From Oscillospiraceae bacterium (lineage in GTDB: Bacteria > Bacillota > Clostridia > Lachnospirales > Lachnospiraceae), in NCBI GenBank assembly GCA_021771715.1, contig JAETOO010000002.1:1-64000 (forward strand): a stretch of 64,000 nt of DNA, written 5' to 3'. A model generated the notes under the pieces. The model was not told where the DNA came from. It saw only the letters and a list, made by a program, of their open reading frames with translations, and did not search any database. Shown piece by piece: positions 26,893 to 63,964 of the stretch (its first letter is position 1; each line of letters begins with the position of its first letter). A program made the translations under genes and the position numbers.

Positions 26893-26902
26893 GGGGTGGA
26901 AT

Positions 26903-26990
26903 CAACAGGGGAGCTTGTAGGACAGGCTGAGAGGAAGGTGGGACCTTCGACCCTTATACCTGATGCGGATAATGCCGTCGTAGGAAATCA
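26903..26990 (+). ncRNA. TPP riboswitch (thi box)
   Basis: The conserved TPP aptamer elements occur in order: ACAGGGGAGC, then GGCTGAGAGG, then a variable P3 hairpin (AAGGTGGGACCTT), then GACCCTTATACCTGATGCGGAT and AATGCCGTCGTAGGAA. (This pyrimidine/pyrophosphate core is split here by position.) A terminator follows at 27006-27035 and thiC is the downstream gene, so TPP binding should favour termination. Confidence 0.95.
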
Positions 26991-27005
26991 TAGTTCGACT
27001 TTCGT

Positions 27006-54217: not shown

Positions 54218-54360
54218 CGACCGGAACGCCATTCAAAAATGAAAACACAGGTCTCCGCTTCGCTCCGGTCGGCGCTAAACGCGTGCCGCTGGCACGCAGC
54301 GCCCTTAGCAAGCGAGCTTGCACGGTCTGTCTTTCCATTTTTTTAACATGGCTGAACTGG
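54218..54360 (-). repeat. Dispersed multi-hairpin element, copy 1 (reverse orientation)
   Basis: Read on the minus strand it begins CCAGTTCAGCCATG and contains the hairpins GCAAGC-TC-GCTTGC and GCGTGCC-AGC-GGCACGC, then TTTAGCGCCGACCGGAGCGA and GACCTGTG. Outer AAAAATG...ACAG and CTGT...CATTTTT blocks can close the whole element. It lies between the binding protein and ATPase genes of the nucleoside importer. It shares blocks with copies at 55609 and 63708 but lacks the middle hairpins present in those. Confidence 0.85.
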
Positions 54361-54369
54361 CGATGCAAA

Positions 54370-54401
54370 GAATGCTCCGTCTTACGAAAGACAGAGCATC
54401 C
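54370..54401. terminator. Hairpin after the nucleoside-binding protein gene
   Basis: ATGCTCCGTCTT and AAGACAGAGCAT pair, with one mismatch, around ACGA. The plus side continues CCTTTTTCTT and the minus side CTTTG. It could attenuate transcription between the binding protein and ATPase genes or stop antisense transcription. Confidence 0.65.
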
Positions 54402-54425
54402 TTTTTCTTACGGTATGATCAGTAA

Positions 54426-55484
54426 TTATTTGGTTGTCTTCTCAAGGTAGGTCTCGAATGCTGTGTTGTCAACGAGCTGATCCACAACCTTCGTCTCGCC
54501 GGTTCTTACCTTCTCGGCGAACTCAGTTACCTTCGCCATCTCTTCCTCGGTCATGTTCGCTTTGTAGTAGTCGTTCTCTGCGAGGCCGACACCGCCGTCT
54601 GCGTACGTCAGAACCTTCTGCGTGCCGTACTCTGCCGTGCCGTCGAGCATCTTGGTGATGCAGTTCAGGATCGCCGTGTCACAGTTCTTGACCGCGGAGG
54701 TCAGGATCGTGTTCGCCAGATCCGGCTGCTCGCTCAGGGAAACATACTGGTCCGTATCTACGCCGACTGCCCACACGCCGTCTGCCGCTGCAACTGCCTC
54801 AAACACGCCGTTGCCCGCGCCGCCTGCTGCGTGGTAGATCACGTCTGCGCCCTGGTCGATCATGTTGGTCGCCAGCTCCTTCGCAACACCGGTATCCTGG
54901 AAGTTGCCCACGAAGCCGATGATGCACTGTACATCCGGGTTCACGTCGCTCGCGCCCTGCATAAAGCCTGCCAGGAACTGACGGATACCGTCGTTGTCCA
55001 TGCCGCCGACTGCGCCCACGATGCCGCTCTGAGACTTCACCGCTGCCACTACGCCTGCGAGATATCCGATCTCGTTGGAAGCGTACGTCACCGCGTAGAC
55101 ATTGTCCTTCGAGTTTGCCTCCACGTCGGAGTAGTCGAAGTTCAGGAACTTGATCTCCGGATAATCTGCAGCTACGGTCAGCATTGCGCCCTCGTACTGG
55201 AAGTTACCGGAAATGATGATGTCGTACCCCTCAGCCGCTGCCTGACGGTTTGCCGCCTCCCAGCCTGCAGCATCGATACCCATCTCGATCAGCTGCGTCT
55301 CTACCTTGTCGCCGAACTCCTCGTTTACCAGATCCAGGCCGCGTGCTGTCACGTCGAAATAGGACTGGTCGCCGATGTACGGAAGCAGAAGCGCAATCCT
55401 CGTCGGATCCTCCTCCGCAAACGCCGTCGCGCAAAGAGACATCGTCATCCCTGCAGCCAGAAGAAATGCAAGTGCTTTTTTCAT
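54426..55484 (-). CDS. BMP-family nucleoside-binding protein
   Basis: This is the extracytoplasmic substrate-binding protein of the PnrA/BmpA (basic membrane protein) family, 352 residues; characterised members bind purine nucleosides. The signal sequence ends about ATAFA-EED, and the cysteine in MSLCA is not in a good lipobox, so lipid anchoring is uncertain. RIALLLPYIGDQSYFDVTAR and the ligand-loop region AVGGMDNDGIRQFLAGFMQG are typical. The ATG at 55484 has AAGGAGG upstream and a very good promoter at 55544-55572. It heads the importer operon. Confidence 0.93.
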   Translation of the reverse strand: MKKALAFLLAAGMTMSLCATAFAEEDPTRIALLLPYIGDQSYFDVTARGLDLVNEEFGDKVETQLIEMGIDAAGWEAANRQAAAEGYDIIISGNFQYEGAMLTVAADYPEIKFLNFDYSDVEANSKDNVYAVTYASNEIGYLAGVVAAVKSQSGIVGAVGGMDNDGIRQFLAGFMQGASDVNPDVQCIIGFVGNFQDTGVAKELATNMIDQGADVIYHAAGGAGNGVFEAVAAADGVWAVGVDTDQYVSLSEQPDLANTILTSAVKNCDTAILNCITKMLDGTAEYGTQKVLTYADGGVGLAENDYYKANMTEEEMAKVTEFAEKVRTGETKVVDQLVDNTAFETYLEKTTK

Positions 55485-55543
55485 TGAAATGCTCCTCCTT
55501 ATGATGTGTGTAATTTGAGTAAATATTAAGAAAATCTAAATTT

Positions 55544-55572
55544 ATTAAAGCATAATTTATAGTCAAAGTCAA
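55544..55572 (-). promoter_or_regulatory. Promoter of the nucleoside importer operon
   Basis: On the minus strand TTGACT (55572-55567) and TTTAAT (55549-55544) are 17 bases apart, with TGC before the -10 (extended). It lies 60 bases upstream of the binding protein start. Confidence 0.85.
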
Positions 55573-55608
55573 TGCGGTTTTGTCGCCAAAACGCGAAAAA
55601 TGTGGTAA

Positions 55609-55770
55609 CAGTTCAGCCATGCAAAAAAAATGGGAAGACAGGCCGTGCAAGCTTGCTTGCTAAGGGCTGTATTCCCATTTTTGAATGGGCGGAACGCCCA
55701 TTCAGCCACAGACAGGAGCCGCGTAGCGGCGGATAGCTTGCGTAGCAAGCGCGTCTGTGGCTTGCATGGC
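55609..55770 (+). repeat. Dispersed multi-hairpin element, copy 2
   Basis: It begins CAGTTCAGCCATGC. An outer stem, AATGGGAA with TTCCCATT, encloses ACAG/CTGT, CC/GG and the inner GCAAGC-TT-GCTTGC. Then follow GAATGGGCG-GAA-CGCCCATTC, GCCACAGACAGGAGC, GCCGC-GTA-GCGGC and GCTTGC-GTA-GCAAGC. The outer ends GCCATGCA and TTGCATGGC are inverted copies, so the whole unit can fold back. It sits between two minus-strand genes, read on the plus strand. Confidence 0.88.
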
Positions 55771-55775
55771 GTCCT

Positions 55776-57134
55776 CTACACTGCTTCCCGCGTAATATTT
55801 TTCAGCCATTTTTTGCTGTGGTAGCGGCGGAAGACCCACGGCCACTTCACGAACTCGTCCGTGCACAGCAAAAAGTAGACGACCATCGGCGGGAGCTTCA
55901 GCACGAACGCGGAAAAGAATCCGAGGGGCACCGCATAGCACCACATGTCGATCACATCGCAGATGCAGCCGAACCTGCTGTCCCCGCCTGCGCGGAACAG
56001 CCCGGCAATCAGCGTCGTGTTCACCGCCGTGCCCATGATGTAGTACGTGTTAATCATGAGCATGACCTTCAGATACCCGGCGGCCGTCTCGTTGAGCGAC
56101 GCATACCGCAGCACGAAGGGCGAGACAAGCGCCACCAGAAGCCCTCCGACCGCTCCCGTCGCCACGGTCAGCTTCAGCGCCCGCGCGCCGTCGACCTCCG
56201 CCTCGCGGATCTGGTTCGCGCCGATCTCCTTGCCGACGTAGATGCCGCTCGCGTTCGCGACCGCAAAGCACATCACCGTGCCGAAATTCCGCACCACGAC
56301 CACGAGGGAGTTGGCCGCGACCACATCGCTGCCCATATGCCCCATGATCACAGAGTACATCGAGAACGCGACGCTCCAGATGATGTCATTGAGCAGCGCC
56401 GGAAGCGACAAACGCAGGAAATCCTGCATGAGCACGCCGCCCTTCCCGAACATCTCCGACAGCCGCAGATGCACGTCCTTCGACACCGCCGACACCACAA
56501 AGCATGCGACCAATTCCACCGCGCGGGAGATCGACGTCGCGAGCGCCACGCCCTGGATTCCGAGCTTCGGCGCGCCGAACAGGCCGAAGACGAACACCGC
56601 ATTCAGGATAATGTTCAGCATCAGCGCCATGATGTTCAGAGCCGTGCTCGTCTTCACGCGCTCAATGCTGCGCAGCACAGCCAGGTACGCTTCGGAAATT
56701 CCCCAGCACACGTAGCTGACGCTGATCGCCTGCAGGTACGACGCGCCCAGGCGAATCAGCTCTTCATCGTTTGTGAACACCTTCATCATCAGCTCCGGGA
56801 CTGTCGCCGCAGGGAGCGCGAACAGCAGCGAGATCAGGATGGAGAAGCGCAGAGCGAAGCCCTCCACCCGCTCGATCACGCGCAGCTCGCCCTTTCCCCA
56901 GTACTGCGCACAGAGCATGGTCACACCCGTCCCAAGCCCGTAATAAACCATGTGCAGAATATTGGTGTACTGCACCGCCAGGGACGCCGCCGATATCGAC
57001 GACTGTCCCACCGTGTTCAGCATGATCACATCCGCAGAGCTGATCGCCGCGCTGAACAGGTTCTGAATCACAATCGGGAGCGTCAGCCGCAGGATCCTGC
57101 CGTACGCGGCGCGCTCATTTCTGTCAAACCTCAT
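55776..57134 (-). CDS. MATE-family efflux transporter (NorM-like)
   Basis: This is the third MATE protein of the window, 452 residues from the ATG at 57134, which has GGAGG ten bases upstream. Twelve hydrophobic segments are visible, with PIVIQNLFSAAISSADVIML near the start and the internal repeat typical of the family. The frame extends upstream to 57191 without a ribosome binding site. It is monocistronic: the SNF2 gene upstream is separated by a repeat-like tract and element copy 2 lies just after its stop. Confidence 0.86.
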   Translation of the reverse strand: MRFDRNERAAYGRILRLTLPIVIQNLFSAAISSADVIMLNTVGQSSISAASLAVQYTNILHMVYYGLGTGVTMLCAQYWGKGELRVIERVEGFALRFSILISLLFALPAATVPELMMKVFTNDEELIRLGASYLQAISVSYVCWGISEAYLAVLRSIERVKTSTALNIMALMLNIILNAVFVFGLFGAPKLGIQGVALATSISRAVELVACFVVSAVSKDVHLRLSEMFGKGGVLMQDFLRLSLPALLNDIIWSVAFSMYSVIMGHMGSDVVAANSLVVVVRNFGTVMCFAVANASGIYVGKEIGANQIREAEVDGARALKLTVATGAVGGLLVALVSPFVLRYASLNETAAGYLKVMLMINTYYIMGTAVNTTLIAGLFRAGGDSRFGCICDVIDMWCYAVPLGFFSAFVLKLPPMVVYFLLCTDEFVKWPWVFRRYHSKKWLKNITREAV

Positions 57135-57191
57135 CTTGTCCGTTCCTCCGTGTATTCCCATATCCTTCCGTGTATTTCTGCGCAGGCTCAT

Positions 57192-57437
57192 TCTTCCTGC
57201 CCAGCTTCATATACTTCCATCATTTTCTGCACCGTTTCGTATCCCTCTGTGCACGTTTAATTTCCGTATATTTCTATACCTCTCCGCACACGTTTGCATC
57301 GTTCTATGCTATCTGTATACTTTCCTATTATTTCTATGCTTCTCTGCACAATTTCATATCGTTCTATGTTTTTCCGCCCTCATCATGTATCTCTTTTGCG
57401 TGTTTAGGAACTCATGTCCTCTCTCCCCAGCAGCACT
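57192..57437. repeat. Degenerate pyrimidine-rich repeats
   Basis: TTTCTAT, CCTCTSYGCACA and CATCGTTCTATG words recur. The clearest pair is at about 57261-57309 and 57337-57374. The tract fills the space between the SNF2 gene stop and the MATE start, and carries no credible gene. Confidence 0.5.
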
Positions 57438-60400
57438 TCAGCTCCCCAGAATCGCGAGCAGTTCCTCCTTCGAGAGCGCCGTGATCGGGACGGTATCTCC
57501 GGAGAGGAGACGTCCGGCCAGCTCCTGCTTTTTCTCCTGCAGCCCGACAATTTTCTCCTCGATCGTATCCTGCGCGATCAGCTTGAAGACCACGACCTGG
57601 CTGCGCTGCCCGATCCGGTGTGCACGGTCGGTCGCCTGATTCTGCGCCGCCAGGTTCCACCACGGGTCAAAGTGGATCACGATGCTCGCCGCGGTCAGGT
57701 TCAGCCCGGTGCCTCCCGCCTTCAGCGAGATGAGAAAGACCGGAACGTTATCCGCGTTGAATGCTTCGGTCAGCCGCTGCCGCTCCTTCTTCGGCGTCTC
57801 ACCGGTCAGCTCATAGCAGGCGATCCCCTCCTCCTCGAACCGTCTTCTCAGGATCGGGAACATGCTCGTGAACTGCGAGAAAATCAGGACCTTGTGTCTG
57901 CCCCAGACCGCCTCCCGCACCAGCTCCACGCACGTCTCCACCTTGCACGCGCCCGCCGCGTAGTCCTCGTAGAGCAGCGACGGATCGCAGCAGATCTGCC
58001 GCAGCCGCGTCAGCCCGGCCAAAAGCTGCAGCTGCTCCCGCGAGAGCTCCTCGCTGCTCTTTGCGGCGATCTGGCCCGCGAGCTGCACGGCGTGCGCCTC
58101 GTAGAGCCTGCGCTGCTCCTCCTCCATCTGCGCGTAGACGATCTGCTCCAGCTTCTCCGGGAGCTCTTTGAGCACCTCCTGCTTCAGACGCCTCAGGATG
58201 AACGGCGCCACCAGCCTCCTCAGCCGCGCCGTCGCCCGGCCATCGCCGTCCTGCACGATCGGCTGCTCATACGCCGCGCGGAAGCTCTGGTACGTGCCGA
58301 GCATCCCCGGCATCAGGTAATCGAAAATGCTCCACAGCTCGCCGAGCCGGTTCTCGATCGGCGTGCCGGTCAGCGCGAACCGCGATGCCGCGCAAATCTT
58401 CTTTACCGACCGCGCCGCCTGCGTGCCCTGATTCTTGATGTTCTGCGCCTCGTCGATAATCTCCGTGTCGAACTCCAGCCCCTCATAAAGCGCGATGTCG
58501 CGCTTCAGCAGGTCGTACGACGTCACCCAGACATCGCCAAACATTACCTGCGCTGCTTCTCCGTCTGACGGCAGGCACTGCTGCGCCATCTCTTTGGCAG
58601 CCGCCTCTTCCCTCTCACATCCCGTCCGCAGACCGCTCTGCTCTTTCCCCGTCACGCCCTGCCACTGCCGCGCCGCCTCCAGAAACGCCTCCCGTGACGC
58701 TGCGCCCCCTGCGATCAATCGCACGTCGAGCGAGGGCGCGAACCGCTCAAGCTCGCGCTTCCAGTTGTAGACGAGCGAGGCCGGACAGACGATCAGCCCC
58801 GGCCTGCGGCTGATTCCCTCCTCCTTGCGCGCCAGCAGGTACGCGATCGTCTGCAGCGTCTTGCCAAGTCCCATCTCATCCGCGAGGATTCCGCCGAAGC
58901 CGAGCTGTGCCATGAGCCGCAGCCACCGGTAGCCGGTCCGCTGATACTCTCTCAGCGTCCCCGCGAGCGCTCCCGGCACCCGGTATTCACACACCTCCGC
59001 CTCTCTAAGTTCCCGCAGCAGCGCCTGGCAGCGCGCGTCCCGGCTCACCTCCAACGCTCCGTCCGCCTCCCGCAGAGACTCATCGACATAGCACGCGCGA
59101 TACCCCGGCAGGACGATGGTCTCCTTCTGCAGCTCCTTTTTTGAGAGGCCGAGACCATCCAGCAGCTCCGCCACCGCCGCGACGGAATTGTGCTCCAGCT
59201 CCAGGAAATCGCCGCTGCGCAAACGGTGATACTTTTTCCGTTTCCGGTAGCTCTCCAGAATCTCCTCCAGCTCTCCCGGTGAAAACACGTCCGAGGAAAC
59301 CGACAGCTCCAACAGCCCGCTCTCCAGCGAGATGCCCACCTGTGTCCGCGGGGACCGGATCACGGAGTGCGCACGGATGCGGTCTGTCGCGTAGACCTTC
59401 CCCTCCTGCTCCAGCTGGCTGATTCCGGTGTCCAGCAGCCGGTACATCAGATCGTGCTCAGACGACGCAAAGCACAGCACGCCCGCCTTCGCGTCTGTCC
59501 GCGGAAAATACGCGCGCGCGGCGGCAAGCGCCCTCCGCTCCCGGTCGACGTCGCGGTAACCCTCCCGGATTTTCCTGCGCACACTCTTTTGCCCGCTCCC
59601 GTCCGCACTGCCTCCTCCGAACGGCGTCTGCCCCTCGCCTGCCGGGATCCAACCGTTCTCCTGCAGTGCCCTGGCCTCCGGCCGCGCCCCAAGGGCGGTG
59701 CACGGCTCCTCCCGCTCCAGCAGATTGAACAGCGCGGCTCCGTAGGCGCACTCCGCCTTCAGCGTCACCCGCCCGTCCTCCTCGTCGAGATAATAGCGGA
59801 TCTCCGCCTTACCCGGCCGGTATGCTTCCAGCTCCGCTGCCCCGGCGTCCACCGCGCGCTGGCTCTCCAGCTCCGGCAGCACCGCCGCGCAGAATGCCCG
59901 CATATCCTCCGGCGCAATCCGGTAAAGCACCTCTTTTTCCGGATTCGCGCACTCCAGAATGCACTCCATCGCGCTCCGGTAGTCCTTTGTGCACCGGTAG
60001 ATCTCATCCTCCACTCGCACAAACAGGTACGCTTCGCCCTTCCAGATCGAGAGCGGCGGGATCGCGATCCGGTAGCCACCCTGCTCCTGTGTGAGATTAA
60101 GCCGCACAGGCGGATTTCCATCGACGATCCGAAGCGTGTCGTACCGGTACCCGATGCAGTCGTACTGGATCTTTTTTCCGATATTCAGACTCAGGAAGCG
60201 CTCCATCGTCGCAAGATTCAGCTGCAGCTCCTTGTCCGCCCTGTCTCTGTGCTCGCTGCACATTTCTTCCGCCGCGAGGATCAGCCTGACGTACTCCCAG
60301 CCCTGCGCGCTGAACGCGCTCTTGCTGTGCACGAACGAGAGGCGCTTCCCGTAGGTGTAGGCCGTCTCCGTCACCACCGCGCGCACGAAATCCGTCAGGC

Positions 60401-61007
60401 TCTTCAGCACGTACTTCCGGCCCTTCACCGTCCCTATCTGGAACGTCAGCGCGTAGCTCTTTCTGCCGAAATAGTAGTTCCAGCCGGTCTCGTGCAGCGT
60501 CGGGATCAGCTCGATCTCCCCGTCGGCCTCCTGCTCCCGCATCCGCTTGCGCATCACGTAATCCTGGATGATCCCGACCATCTCCCGGTCTGAGCGGACC
60601 CGCCGCGCCTCCGAGAGCATCCCGCGGTACGCGTGCATTCTCGCCCTGCTCCTGCTCTTCTCCAGATACGCAAGCGCAACCGCCGCACAGTGCGCACACA
60701 TGCCCGGGGACTCCTGAAACTCCGCGCACTCGCACGCATAGTCCTCGATCACGTCCTCGGACTTGTTGTAGCGCACCCAGACATAGAACGAATTCTCAGA
60801 AACCACCGTCTTCTGAGAATTCTCCTTGTCCCCCGCATCCTTGCGCCGCGGGTTTGCCGCGACGTTTCCTTCTATATAAATGGTCCCGGAAACCTCTGCC
60901 TCCTCCTCCCGCAGCGCCCCGACGGCGCCCGAGACCTGCAGCCGCTGCCCCTTCAAAAAGGTCAGCTCCCGCAGACAGAGCTTCTCTATCTCATTTTCGT
61001 CGAACAT
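57438..61007 (-). CDS. SNF2-family helicase with SWIM zinc finger
   Basis: This is a large DNA-translocating ATPase of the bacterial SNF2/Rad54-like type, about 1189 residues. The SWIM zinc-binding motif (CECAEFQESPGMCAHC) lies near residue 92-107. A long middle region (about 150-640) is the family's accessory domain. The helicase core has DEMGLGKTLQTIAYLLA (Walker A), IIDEAQNIKNQGTQ (DEAH-like) and, in the second lobe, LKAGGTGLNLTAASIVIHFD and QATDRAHRIGQ. The ATG at 61007 has AGGAG upstream. A hydrophilic insertion (GKEQSGLRTGCEREEAAAKE region) lies between helicase motifs Ia and II. Confidence 0.92.
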   Translation of the reverse strand: MFDENEIEKLCLRELTFLKGQRLQVSGAVGALREEEAEVSGTIYIEGNVAANPRRKDAGDKENSQKTVVSENSFYVWVRYNKSEDVIEDYACECAEFQESPGMCAHCAAVALAYLEKSRSRARMHAYRGMLSEARRVRSDREMVGIIQDYVMRKRMREQEADGEIELIPTLHETGWNYYFGRKSYALTFQIGTVKGRKYVLKSLTDFVRAVVTETAYTYGKRLSFVHSKSAFSAQGWEYVRLILAAEEMCSEHRDRADKELQLNLATMERFLSLNIGKKIQYDCIGYRYDTLRIVDGNPPVRLNLTQEQGGYRIAIPPLSIWKGEAYLFVRVEDEIYRCTKDYRSAMECILECANPEKEVLYRIAPEDMRAFCAAVLPELESQRAVDAGAAELEAYRPGKAEIRYYLDEEDGRVTLKAECAYGAALFNLLEREEPCTALGARPEARALQENGWIPAGEGQTPFGGGSADGSGQKSVRRKIREGYRDVDRERRALAAARAYFPRTDAKAGVLCFASSEHDLMYRLLDTGISQLEQEGKVYATDRIRAHSVIRSPRTQVGISLESGLLELSVSSDVFSPGELEEILESYRKRKKYHRLRSGDFLELEHNSVAAVAELLDGLGLSKKELQKETIVLPGYRACYVDESLREADGALEVSRDARCQALLRELREAEVCEYRVPGALAGTLREYQRTGYRWLRLMAQLGFGGILADEMGLGKTLQTIAYLLARKEEGISRRPGLIVCPASLVYNWKRELERFAPSLDVRLIAGGAASREAFLEAARQWQGVTGKEQSGLRTGCEREEAAAKEMAQQCLPSDGEAAQVMFGDVWVTSYDLLKRDIALYEGLEFDTEIIDEAQNIKNQGTQAARSVKKICAASRFALTGTPIENRLGELWSIFDYLMPGMLGTYQSFRAAYEQPIVQDGDGRATARLRRLVAPFILRRLKQEVLKELPEKLEQIVYAQMEEEQRRLYEAHAVQLAGQIAAKSSEELSREQLQLLAGLTRLRQICCDPSLLYEDYAAGACKVETCVELVREAVWGRHKVLIFSQFTSMFPILRRRFEEEGIACYELTGETPKKERQRLTEAFNADNVPVFLISLKAGGTGLNLTAASIVIHFDPWWNLAAQNQATDRAHRIGQRSQVVVFKLIAQDTIEEKIVGLQEKKQELAGRLLSGDTVPITALSKEELLAILGS

Positions 61008-61313
61008 ACATCTCTCCTGACTATCCACATCCGATGTCCCATGCAGACTCCAAAGCCAGTATACCTGAAATCGACCGAAAGCTCAAGCGAAAAAGTCCGG
61101 GTCTGCGAAAGAGAACAAGAATCAGCGCTGCAAAATCACCGCCGCCCGCGCGCGATTTTCCTGTTTTCAAATCCTGCCTTTTGCGCTACAATAGGGGCGG
61201 GGATTTTTACCTGTGGAACATCCTCCCGCGGCGGCTCCCACAGCCGGCCGCAACCTACGCTGCATGAATATCCGTGATACACACCGCTTCACAGAAGCCA
61301 TGAGGAATCGATT
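61008..61313. other. Divergent intergenic region between SNF2 and mutS2
   Basis: The only clear signals are a probable mutS2 promoter at 61164-61192 (TTTTCA, 17 bases, TACAAT) and a CTGTGG/CCACAG palindrome around 61211-61253 within the resulting leader. No gene is seen. Confidence 0.5.
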
Positions 61314-63707
61314 ATGAATGAAAAAGCCTTAAAGGTATTGGAATACCCGAAAATCATACAGAAACTCACAGAGTACGCCGCATCCGCGCCCGCAAAGGAG
61401 CTCTGCCGGAACCTCGTCCCGGTCTCTGACCTCTCGCAGATCCGGCGGATGCAGACGGAGACCACCGACGCGGTCAGCCGGCTGCTGCGCAAGGGCAACA
61501 TCTCGTTCTCCGGCCTGACGGACCTGAGGCCGTCACTGCGCCGGCTCGAGATCGGCAGCGCGCTGAACATCGAGGAGCTGCTGCGCGTCTGCCGGCTGCT
61601 CGAGACGACGGGCCGCGTCAAGGCGTGGTCGCGCAGCGCACGCACCGGCGAGGAGGAGCCCCAGGACGACTCCCTCGAGGAGCTGTTCGCCGGACTCTCG
61701 CCGCTCACGCCGCTCGCGCAGGAGATCACACGCTGCATTCTCTCCGAGGAGGAGATCGCCGACGACGCGAGCCCGGGGTTGCGGCAGGTGCGCCGCCAGA
61801 TGCACCAGACAAACGACCGCATCCGCCAGCAGCTGAACGCGCTCGTAAACGGCCAGACGCGCACCTATCTGCAGGACGCCGTGATCACACAGCGGAACGG
61901 CCGTTTCTGCATCCCGGTCAAGGCCGAATACCGCGGCCAGGTGCCCGGCATGATCCACGACCAGTCCTCGACCGGCTCCACGCTCTTCGTCGAGCCGATG
62001 GCCGTCGTGAAGTTGAACAATGACCTGCGCGAGCTCGAGCTGCGCGAGGAGAAGGAGATCGAGATCGTGCTGGCCACCCTGAGCAGCCAGGTTGCCGACC
62101 ACAGCGACGCGATCAACGACAACATCCTGCTCCTGACCGAGCTCGACTTTATCTTCGCCCGCGCACGGCTCTCGCTCTCCTACAAGGGCTCCGAGCCGGA
62201 CTTCAACGAGGACGGGCGCATCCGGATCAAGAAGGGCCGCCACCCGCTGCTCGACGCGAAAAAGGTCGTCCCGGTCGACATCCGGATCGGCGACGATTTC
62301 ACGATGCTCGTCATCTCCGGGCCAAACACAGGCGGAAAGACGGTCTCCCTGAAGACCGTCGGCCTCTTCACGCTGCTCGGCCAGGCCGGGCTGCACATCC
62401 CTGCCTCCGACCACTCGGAGCTCTCCGTCTTTGACGAGGTCTACGCGGACATCGGCGACGAGCAGAGCATTGAGCAGAGCCTGAGCACCTTCTCCTCGCA
62501 CATGACGAACATCGTCTCGTTCTGGGAGCAGGCCGACGAGCGCTCCCTGGTGCTCTTCGACGAGCTCGGCGCGGGCACGGATCCCACGGAGGGCGCGGCG
62601 CTCGCAATCGCGATTCTCTCGAACCTGCACCGCCGGGAGGTCCGCACCATCGCCACGACGCACTACAGCGAGCTGAAGGTCTTCGCCCTCTCGACGCCGG
62701 GCGTCGAGAACGGCTGCTGCGAGTTCAGCGTCGAGACGCTGCGCCCGACCTACCGCCTGCTGATCGGCGTGCCCGGCAAGAGCAACGCCTTCGCCATCTC
62801 GGAGAAGCTCGGCCTGCCCGACTACGTCATCGCGGAGGCAAAGGAGCATCTGTCCCAGGAGGCCGAGAGCTTTGAGGACGTCATCTCCGACCTCGAGTCC
62901 ACCCGGATTCTCGTCGAGCGCGAGCGCGAGGACGCCAACCGCTACCGGCTCGAGATGGAGGAGCTGAAAAAGCGCCTCGAGCGCAAGGAGGACCGGCTCG
63001 AATCCAGCCGCGACGAGATCCTGCGCAAGGCCCGCGAGGAGGCACAATCGATCCTGCGCGACGCGAAGGAGTACGCCGACGAGGCAATCCGCAAGTACAA
63101 CCGGCTGGGCAATGCCTCCGGATCCCAGAAGGAGATGGAGCGCGAGCGCGCGAAGCTGCGCGAGAAGGTCTCCGGCCTGCAGAACGACAACAGTCTCAAG
63201 ACCGCAAAGAGAGCAAAGAAGGAGCTGACCGCCAAGGACCTGCGCGTCGGCGACAGCGTGAAGGTGCTGAGCATGAACCTGCGCGGCACCGTCAGCACAC
63301 TGCCGGACGCAAAGGGCAATCTCTTCGTGCAGATGGGCATCCTCCGCTCTCAGGTTCACATAAAGGATCTCGAAAAGCTCGAAGACGAGCTCCCGGCATA
63401 CGCAAAGGGGCCGTCCTCAAAGGTGTCGGGCAGCGGCAAGATCAAAATGTCCAAATCCGCGACCATCAGCGCCGAGATCAACCTGCTCGGCATGACGACG
63501 GACGAGGCGATCGTCGAGCTCGACAAGTACCTCGACGATGCCTACCTCGCCCACCTCTCCCCGGTGCGCGTCGTCCACGGCAAGGGCACCGGCGCACTGC
63601 GCAAAGCCGTGCACCAGTACCTCCGCCGCCAAAAACACGTCGCCTCCTACCGCCTCGGCGAGTACGGCGAAGGGGACGCAGGGGTCACGATTGTAGAGTT
63701 TAAGTAA
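61314..63707 (+). CDS. mutS2: Endonuclease MutS2
   Basis: This is a MutS-family ATPase of 797 residues with a C-terminal Smr nuclease domain, acting in suppression of recombination and/or rescue of collided ribosomes. The core contains GPNTGGKTVSLKTVGLF (Walker A, near residue 340), LVLFDELGAGTDPTEGAALA (Walker B, near 410) and a long coiled coil (about 520-620). The Smr domain (about 720-797) reads INLLGMTTDEAIVELDKYLD, with VRVVHGKGTGALRKAVHQYL. The ATG at 61314 has GAGGA upstream. Dispersed element copy 3 begins directly after its stop codon. Confidence 0.96.
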   Translation: MNEKALKVLEYPKIIQKLTEYAASAPAKELCRNLVPVSDLSQIRRMQTETTDAVSRLLRKGNISFSGLTDLRPSLRRLEIGSALNIEELLRVCRLLETTGRVKAWSRSARTGEEEPQDDSLEELFAGLSPLTPLAQEITRCILSEEEIADDASPGLRQVRRQMHQTNDRIRQQLNALVNGQTRTYLQDAVITQRNGRFCIPVKAEYRGQVPGMIHDQSSTGSTLFVEPMAVVKLNNDLRELELREEKEIEIVLATLSSQVADHSDAINDNILLLTELDFIFARARLSLSYKGSEPDFNEDGRIRIKKGRHPLLDAKKVVPVDIRIGDDFTMLVISGPNTGGKTVSLKTVGLFTLLGQAGLHIPASDHSELSVFDEVYADIGDEQSIEQSLSTFSSHMTNIVSFWEQADERSLVLFDELGAGTDPTEGAALAIAILSNLHRREVRTIATTHYSELKVFALSTPGVENGCCEFSVETLRPTYRLLIGVPGKSNAFAISEKLGLPDYVIAEAKEHLSQEAESFEDVISDLESTRILVEREREDANRYRLEMEELKKRLERKEDRLESSRDEILRKAREEAQSILRDAKEYADEAIRKYNRLGNASGSQKEMERERAKLREKVSGLQNDNSLKTAKRAKKELTAKDLRVGDSVKVLSMNLRGTVSTLPDAKGNLFVQMGILRSQVHIKDLEKLEDELPAYAKGPSSKVSGSGKIKMSKSATISAEINLLGMTTDEAIVELDKYLDDAYLAHLSPVRVVHGKGTGALRKAVHQYLRRQKHVASYRLGEYGEGDAGVTIVEFK

Positions 63708-63916
63708 CCAGTTCAGCACACACCAAAATGCCAAGGCAGACCGGAACGAGCTTGCTCGTGTAGGGCTGTATTTGCATTGTGAAATGGGCGGGACGCCCAT
63801 TAGCCACAGACAGGAGCTGCGAAGCAGCGAATAGCTTGCGTTAGCAAGCGGCGCTGTGTGCCAGTGGCACACGTTTAGCGCCGACCGAAGCGGAGCGTAG
63901 ACCTGTGGCCTGTGTG
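63708..63916 (+). repeat. Dispersed multi-hairpin element, copy 3 (longest)
   Basis: It starts with CCAGTTCAGC at the base after the mutS2 stop. In order: ACGAGC-TT-GCTCGT within AATGC...GCATT, AATGGGCG-GGA-CGCCCATT, GCCACAGACAGGAGC, GCTGC-GAA-GCAGC, GCTTGC-GTTA-GCAAGC, GTGTGCC-AGT-GGCACAC, TTTAGCGCCGACCGAAGCGG and GACCTGTG. It unites the middle hairpins of copy 2 with the 3' blocks of copy 1, and several stems differ from those copies by paired substitutions. Confidence 0.88.
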
Positions 63917-63964
63917 ATGAACGTCCGGATTACCACATACAGCAAAATGCAAAGAGGAAGGGGA

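What the first reader, a model, noticed from the sequence alone, without database searches (positions are those of the whole stretch)
54218..63916. Dispersed multi-hairpin intergenic element with compensatory base changes
Three intergenic copies (54218-54360 minus, 55609-55770 plus, 63708-63916 plus) share an ordered set of blocks and short hairpins. Stems change in pairs: GCAAGC/GCTTGC versus ACGAGC/GCTCGT; GCCGC/GCGGC versus GCTGC/GCAGC; GCGTGCC/GGCACGC versus GTGTGCC/GGCACAC. Loops and single-stranded blocks such as GCCACAGACAGGAGC and TTTAGCGCCGACCG are conserved. This pattern fits selection on folding of an RNA or a DNA cruciform rather than decay of a transposon. Copies are modular (1 lacks the middle, 2 lacks the end, 3 has all) and two abut stop codons exactly. 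I recognise no known family.
Basis: seen in the sequence. Interest (0 to 1): 0.82.

Follow-up and report, generated by a model that had tools for sequence, protein, structure and literature searches.

The report
Nested hairpin mini-transposons in gut bacteria
The three copies belong to a large family of short, gene-less jumping DNA pieces that fold into several hairpins, apparently moved by a borrowed transposase, and smaller two-hairpin pieces have landed inside their hairpins, which is an unusual twist on a known kind of bacterial repeat.

Summary
The window copies belong to a family with at least 55 matches in this 4.18-Mb genome, found in 38 of 47 genomes of the genus, own included. A covariance model built without the window copies finds all three (E 1e-48, 3e-30, 1.5e-4). 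Stems covary strongly: 132 double-changed cells against 30 in shuffles and 20-35 with slid arms.

The interpretation needs changing: these are transposable elements. Ends are GTTACAGTTCAGCC or close variants, with 8-bp target duplications (z 12.1 and 9.7). The mutS2 site lacks the element in 16 of 21 relatives compared. An IS66-family insertion sequence in another genus shares the first 18 bases of copy 2. So this is an IS66-type MITE family with a conserved folded core.

The 'modular' pattern is mostly nested insertion: a 54-bp double-hairpin module (D) sits inside hairpin A in copy 1 and region C in copy 3, elsewhere in B and in D itself. Modules E and F behave alike.

Stems are nearly all Watson-Crick, strand asymmetry is inconclusive and no gene-orientation bias was seen, so an RNA function is not shown. 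What moves D/E/F is unknown.

The parts
54221..54363 (-). Copy 1: left end remnant, hairpin A interrupted by a D module, half of hairpin B; right part missing
   Evidence: model R1 match 54233-54359 minus, E 1.5e-4
54250..54303 (-). D double-hairpin module inserted inside hairpin A of copy 1
   Evidence: same module in other hosts
55605..55774 (+). Copy 2: left terminal repeat, hairpins A, B and C; right terminal repeat missing
   Evidence: R1 match 55609-55772, E 1.1e-48; DNA fold z -10.5
55605..55618 (+). Left terminal inverted repeat GTAACAGTTCAGCC of copy 2; with the next four bases (ATGC) identical to the right end of an IS66-family element in another Lachnospiraceae genus
55626..55682 (+). 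Hairpin A of copy 2
55683..55703 (+). Hairpin B of copy 2
55704..55771 (+). C region of copy 2: closing stem with two inner hairpins, then the outer-stem arm TTGCATGGC
63704..63928 (+). Copy 3: left end (GTAACCAGTTCAGCA; its TAA is the mutS2 stop), hairpins A, B and C with a D module inside C, right end ...GAACGTCCGG
   Evidence: R1 match 63709-63872, E 2.7e-30; no element at this site in 16 of 21 same-genus loci compared
63850..63903 (+). D double-hairpin module inserted in the C region of copy 3

Best explanation
The copies are a MITE family: non-autonomous DNA transposons that an IS66-family transposase moves in trans by acting on the 14-bp ends, making 8-bp target duplications. The body between the ends is a set of near-perfect hairpins (A, B, C). 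Shown: terminal repeats, target duplications, sites without the element, insertion sequences with the same or similar ends and the same duplication length, covarying stems, and double-hairpin modules (D, E, F) nested in the hairpins, D being carried along when the composite transposes. Inferred: that the IS66-type enzyme does the moving; that arms stay complementary in the spreading lineages because the DNA folds (hairpins or cruciforms during replication or transposition) and either copies that fold badly stop spreading or hairpin-templated repair keeps the arms matched; and that D/E/F persist because they sit at loops and junctions, where they leave the host fold intact.
For: GTTACAGTTCAGCC (up to 2 mismatches) occurs 157 times in the genome against 15 for the reversed control pattern. 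Flank identity of elements with both ends (all interior classes) peaks only at 8 bp: 0.586 against 0.272 shuffled in 42 own-genome elements, 0.738 against 0.319 in 20 from other genomes. At least 7 of 8 bases match in 14 of 42 and 12 of 20. IS66-type elements in the family Lachnospiraceae: L247, L254 and L256 have GTTAC ends with perfect 8-bp duplications, as does L240. In genome G412 an IS66-type element ends in GTAACAGTTCAGCC; six of its seven exact ends pair by flank into three 8-bp duplications, and its right end shares the first 18 bases of window copy 2. The mutS2 site has no element in 16 of 21 loci compared. Covariation. The D-filled element L116 has an 8/8 duplication, so the composite moves as a unit. 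Orientation relative to genes is balanced in 25 copies (8 co-directional, 9 opposite, 8 mixed).
Against: This genome (97.7% complete) holds only a sub-threshold IS66 fragment and no relative of the G412 transposase at E 1e-5, so enzyme and MITE were not seen together in one genome. 28 of 42 own-genome elements have fewer than 7 of 8 matching flank bases, and many copies, including all three in the window, lack a recognisable right terminal repeat of the GTTAC type. Within the genome most departures break a pair: of 180 departing cells, 43 are compensated, 51 are G-T or A-C and 86 are other mismatches, so individual copies decay. Unpaired motifs (CAGACAGGAGC, GGATAG) are conserved across species, which transposition by terminal repeats alone does not require.
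Confidence: 0.88

Rival explanations
1. A functional structured RNA (regulatory element or small RNA) that happens to ride on a transposon; stems covary because the RNA fold is selected.
For: Strong covariation with conserved unpaired motifs. The plus strand folds more stably than the minus in 24 of 27, and G-T exceeds A-C, 18 to 8, in the 40 pairs common to both strands.
Against: Within the genome G-T 26 against A-C 25. In model-aligned rows 15 against 6, but six of those 24 rows are the same loci as rows of A1; without them I count 6 against 3. G-U makes up about 1-2% of cells. No gene-orientation bias in 25 copies, no Rfam match, and the one site examined is empty in most relatives compared.
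Confidence: 0.2
2. The paired changes are mutational, not selected: template switching inside imperfect palindromes during replication rewrites one arm from the other.
For: Near-perfect Watson-Crick stems with little G-U; no strand asymmetry within the genome. One extra segment lies in the 5' arm of C in L129 and, reverse-complemented, in the 3' arm in L155 (my reading).
Against: Does not explain conserved linkers, nor a similar fold across genomes, unless folding is also selected; within the genome unrepaired mismatches outnumber compensated pairs 137 to 43.
Confidence: 0.35
3. D, E and F are not mobile: they were copied between palindromes by microhomology-mediated template switching or gene conversion.
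For: Host sites in this genome mostly carry their own D subfamily, so few events are needed; short matches such as GGGC and CTG flank the A-site junction (my reading). I saw no target duplication around D.
Against: D also lies in sequence that is not this MITE (L098, and a GCAACGAG hairpin in L102, L106, L108), and E and F share the D layout while differing in sequence (my reading).
Confidence: 0.45

Closest known systems
BOX elements of Streptococcus pneumoniae (PMC3049150, passages read)
   Same: Modular intergenic repeat with stable folds; ends resemble an insertion sequence (ISSpn2); repeats found inserted into one another
   Different: BOX varies by tandem boxB copies; here double-hairpin modules are nested inside hairpins, and the ends are IS66-type. 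No sequence relation was tested.
IS66-family insertion sequences and their transposase (PF03050, NF033517)
   Same: Same or similar ends (GTAACAGTTCAGCC in G412) and 8-bp duplications; 8-bp repeats for two IS66 elements are tabulated in PMC3281130 (passages read)
   Different: No transposase gene; 30-391 bp in the paired-end elements
bcr1-bcr18 repeats of the Bacillus cereus group (PMC3446304, passages read)
   Same: bcr1-3 are described as MITE-like, and bcr10/bcr18 as having conserved secondary structure
   Different: There the two properties belong to different families; here one family has both
Double-hairpin elements of fungal mitochondrial DNA and repetitive hairpin elements of sponge mitochondria (PMC2800124, passages read; Allomyces work recalled)
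   Same: D, E and F are two-hairpin units, with compensatory stems in D
   Different: Bacterial; nested at loops of a transposon; no sequence relation tested
REP/REPIN elements with RAYT transposases (PMC3733652 passages; PMC3116915 listing only)
   Same: Short palindromic dispersed repeats, often paired
   Different: The two Y1 transposase remnants in this genome have no D, E or F match in their loci; D has no constant GTAG tag (by eye)

Membership tests
MITE | Short, dispersed, several copies, no transposase gene | tested here: met
   30-391 bp in paired-end own-genome elements; at least 55 matches, 40 of 73 candidates scored
MITE | Terminal inverted repeats | tested here: met
   157 matches against 15 control; many copies have lost one end
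MITE | Target-site duplication of fixed length | tested here: met
   8 bp only, z 12.1 and 9.7
MITE | Empty sites in relatives | tested here: met
   mutS2 site: 16 of 21 rows without the element; one site only
MITE | Autonomous partner with the same ends in the same genome | tested here: not met
   Own genome: only a 20.4-bit fragment, none for the G412 protein; partner-like element found in another genus
IS66-derived | 5'-GTAA ends (recalled) and 8-bp duplications | tested here: met
   GTTA/GTAA ends and 8 bp
IS66-derived | Shown to be moved by an IS66 transposase | not testable with these tools
   needs a transposition assay
Structured RNA family | Covariation above controls | tested here: met
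Structured RNA family | Strand-specific constraint (G-U tolerated over A-C) | tested here: inconclusive
   26 to 25 within the genome; 18 to 8 across species; 15 to 6 in model-aligned rows, six of which repeat A1 loci
Structured RNA family | Transcription | not testable with these tools
   no RNA data
Structured RNA family | Match to a described RNA family (Rfam 15) | tested here: not met
REP/REPIN | Associated Y1 (RAYT) transposase flanked by the repeat | tested here: not met
   both own-genome hits are remnants
BOX | Sequence similarity to boxA/boxB/boxC | not tested
   BOX sequences were not fetched

The most novel reading that the evidence does not exclude
D, E and F are a separate class of bacterial mobile element: two-hairpin units of about 54-80 bp that insert into loops or junctions of already folded DNA (or its RNA), D also into itself, so that folded transposons grow like Russian dolls and the composite is then spread by the IS66-type enzyme. 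Target choice would be by fold, not by sequence.
Probability: 0.25. Interest if true: 0.75.

Novelty: new variant of a known kind. Interest (0 to 1): 0.52.

Why it matters
Why so many bacterial repeats (ERIC, BOX, bcr and others) keep elaborate folds is an old question. Here one family, in many related genomes, offers four things together: a probable mover, target duplications, strong stem covariation, and filled and empty versions of nested inserts. That makes it possible to test whether the fold serves transposition, host RNA or neither. The nested modules give a bacterial case of hairpins landing in hairpins with a readable order of events. For annotation, several copies lie at contig ends of draft assemblies, and the family should be masked as mobile DNA before new RNAs are claimed.

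Tried and rejected
Known RNA family: Rfam at gathering score on the window (only a TPP riboswitch at 26897-27003), at E up to 1 on copy 3, and at gathering score on four loci. None matched the element.

Transposon with both ends and a gene in the loci then held: three end pairs 0.5-4 kb apart, none with a matching duplication.

RAYT/Y1 as mover of D/E/F: two remnants in the genome, no module in their loci. Intrinsic terminators: none found at the window copies by the simple scan. Gene-orientation bias: none in 25 copies, with flanking genes taken crudely as the longest ORF on each side.

Strand asymmetry as proof of RNA function: rejected as inconclusive. The cross-species excess shrinks when rows that repeat A1 loci are dropped.

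Rows dropped: A1 holds 27 sequences, 25 of the 32 representatives (L001, L002, L003 and L022 dropped for a D module, L025 as truncated, L151 and L180 as not matching over A) plus L146 and L155 added by hand; four rows are from this genome and several genomes give more than one row. One search dropped duplicate flanks and looked only at end pairs up to 450 bp apart. At mutS2, looked at 22 loci (of 30 fetched); L300 gave no row, leaving 21: 16 without the element, L291, L298 and L301 with element-like remnants, L299 unclassified, L302 badly aligned. L288 was counted as empty but has a CAGTTCAGAC motif.

Caps: one search scored 40 of 73 candidates, and searches list only part of their matches.
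Full report
What is there. The window holds three copies of one repeat, beside mutS2, a MATE efflux gene and ABC transporter genes (names). A 301-bp query around copy 3 gives 55 matches in the window's own genome, with 40 of 73 candidates scored. The left end of copy 2, GTAACAGTTCAGCC, is one base from GTTACAGTTCAGCC, which occurs 157 times in the genome with up to 2 mismatches, against 15 for the reversed control. Of 47 genomes of the genus, own included, 38 match an element of this type. An exact 19-base motif of the core was found in 71 stretches of the species-level genome collection; all but two record titles are Lachnospiraceae or candidate genera that I take to belong there. The exceptions are a Pontibacter record, where the surrounding sequence does not resemble the element, and an 'uncultured Eubacterium' record, where part of it does.

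Structure. In 27 elements from this and other genomes (alignment A1; selection told under Tried and rejected), the consensus has 45 pairs, 28 of them with changes on both sides. Against controls: 96.0% of cells pair, against 83.7% shuffled and 35-42% slid; 132 cells have double changes, against 30.2 shuffled and 20-35 slid. Hairpin A, hairpin B and the second inner hairpin of C vary most. The closing stem of C and the unpaired motifs CAGACAGGAGC and GGATAG are nearly invariant. A covariance model from A1, which contains no window copy, finds the three window copies at E 1.1e-48, 2.7e-30 and 1.5e-4, plus two weak opposite-strand matches. Within the genome the picture is one of decay: of 180 departing stem cells, 43 are compensated and 137 are not.

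It moves. For 62 elements with both ends, whatever their interior, flank identity peaks only at a length of 8 bp: 0.586 against 0.272 shuffled in 42 own-genome elements (z 12.1), and 0.738 against 0.319 in 20 from other genomes (z 9.7); other lengths give z of 3.0 or less. At least 7 of 8 bases match in 14 of 42 and 12 of 20. A further subfamily, with ends GTAACAGTTCAGAAC and GTAACTATTCAGAAC, shows the same 8-bp repeats by eye (for example L186, L190, L193). At the mutS2 site of copy 3, 16 of 21 same-genus loci have 5-84 unaligned bases and no element, and three hold remnants of one. A further locus not in that table, L304, matches the model at E 1e-20 near its mutS2 end, so this site was either hit more than once or is old in one clade.

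What moves it. IS66-family transposases (PF03050) match in 21 of 47 genomes of the genus, over the cut-off in 20; in this genome there is only a 20.4-bit fragment. Several IS66-type elements of the family have GTTAC ends with perfect 8-bp duplications (L240, L247, L254, L256). The closest is in genome G412, of another genus: a 357-aa transposase, cut at a contig end, whose element ends read GTAACAGTTCAGCCATGCGATTG and GTAACAGTTCAGCCTTGCGACTG. Seven exact ends occur; six of them pair by their 8-bp flanks into three duplications, GAAAGAAC, GATTTCCG and TATTTTTT; the seventh has no partner. The right end shares its first 18 bases, GTAACAGTTCAGCCATGC, with window copy 2 and with elements in Candidatus Paralachnospira sangeri (L127, L139). 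A MITE and its exact partner were not found in one genome.

Nested modules. A strict search for the first stem-loop of D followed by GACC, with two nested stems required, gives 28 distinct hits in 0.93 Mb of fetched loci against 1 in block-shuffled sequence. D lies in hairpin A (copy 1, L006, L022, L085), B (L006, L007, L009, L099, L100), C (copy 3, L004, L008, L011) and inside D itself (L020, L029, L063, L106, L108), plus elsewhere (L098, L102). In another species D sits at the loop of hairpin B: in assembly E08__bin320, elements with both ends include three filled (223 bp: L116, L123, L150) and eight empty (174 bp: L119, L122, L134, L140, L159, L160, L165, L167), and filled L116 has an 8/8 duplication, so the composite transposes. 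Stem 1 of D changes in pairs between subfamilies: GGCGCT/AGCGCC, GGTGCT/AGCACC, GTTGCT/AGCAAC and GATGCC/GGCATC. Module E lies in loops of C hairpins 1 (L043, L072) and 2 (L117), and F in the loop of B (L168, L169, L188, L304). By my reading D, E and F share a layout (a stem-loop, then a second hairpin, then ...ACC) but not sequence. Because the same 54 bp occurs at several unrelated positions, insertion or copying, not deletion, is required. By eye, the sites within this MITE lie at or within about two bases of a predicted loop or junction; no statistic was computed. That may reflect target choice or survival of harmless insertions.

RNA or DNA? For RNA: conserved linkers, greater stability of the plus strand in 24 of 27, and a small excess of G-T over A-C across species (18 to 8; 15 to 6). 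G-U is only about 1-2% of cells, and elements point equally with and against neighbouring genes (25 copies). I therefore favour constraint at DNA level, by folding in transposition or by palindrome repair, without proof.

Prior work. In the searched open-access library I found no description of this family and no IS66-derived MITE of this kind; these searches miss most subscription journals, and I saw listings and abstracts' starts except where passages are named. The general kinds are known: MITEs moved by insertion sequences (PMC10969869, PMC2229807, passages), modular BOX elements (PMC3049150, passages), MITE-like and structured bcr repeats (PMC3446304, passages) and mitochondrial double-hairpin elements (PMC2800124, passages). 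Hence 'new variant of a known kind'.

Noticed in passing
L034, L047, L056, L057, L083, L084, L092, L095 (own genome): 30-31-bp palindromes made of the two ends back to back (GTTACAGTTCAGCC-nn(n)-GGCTGAACTGTAAC); four of these eight have at least 6 of 8 matching flank bases. Either the smallest elements that moved or collapsed remnants.
   Followed up: partly
L051, L062, L068, L082, L089 (own genome): A second interior class with the same ends: up to 290 bp, a nested palindrome with no similarity to A/B/C that I could see; shorter forms (L089 110 bp, L082 141 bp) look like successive stages of nesting or of loss.
   Followed up: partly
L035, L044, L076, L094 (own genome): A third arrangement: one terminal repeat followed by a short hairpin of the type AGGACTTTGCA...TGCAAAGTCC, with no second end recognised.
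   Followed up: no
L102, L106, L108 (own genome): Another repeated hairpin (GAGCAACGAG...CTCGTTGC) that carries D, twice with D inside D.
   Followed up: no
window 26897-27003: TPP riboswitch (RF00059, 64.2 bits).
   Followed up: no
L129 and L155: The same extra segment lies in the 5' arm of the C closing stem in one copy and, reverse-complemented, in the 3' arm in the other, as if the arms were swapped through a hairpin.
   Followed up: no
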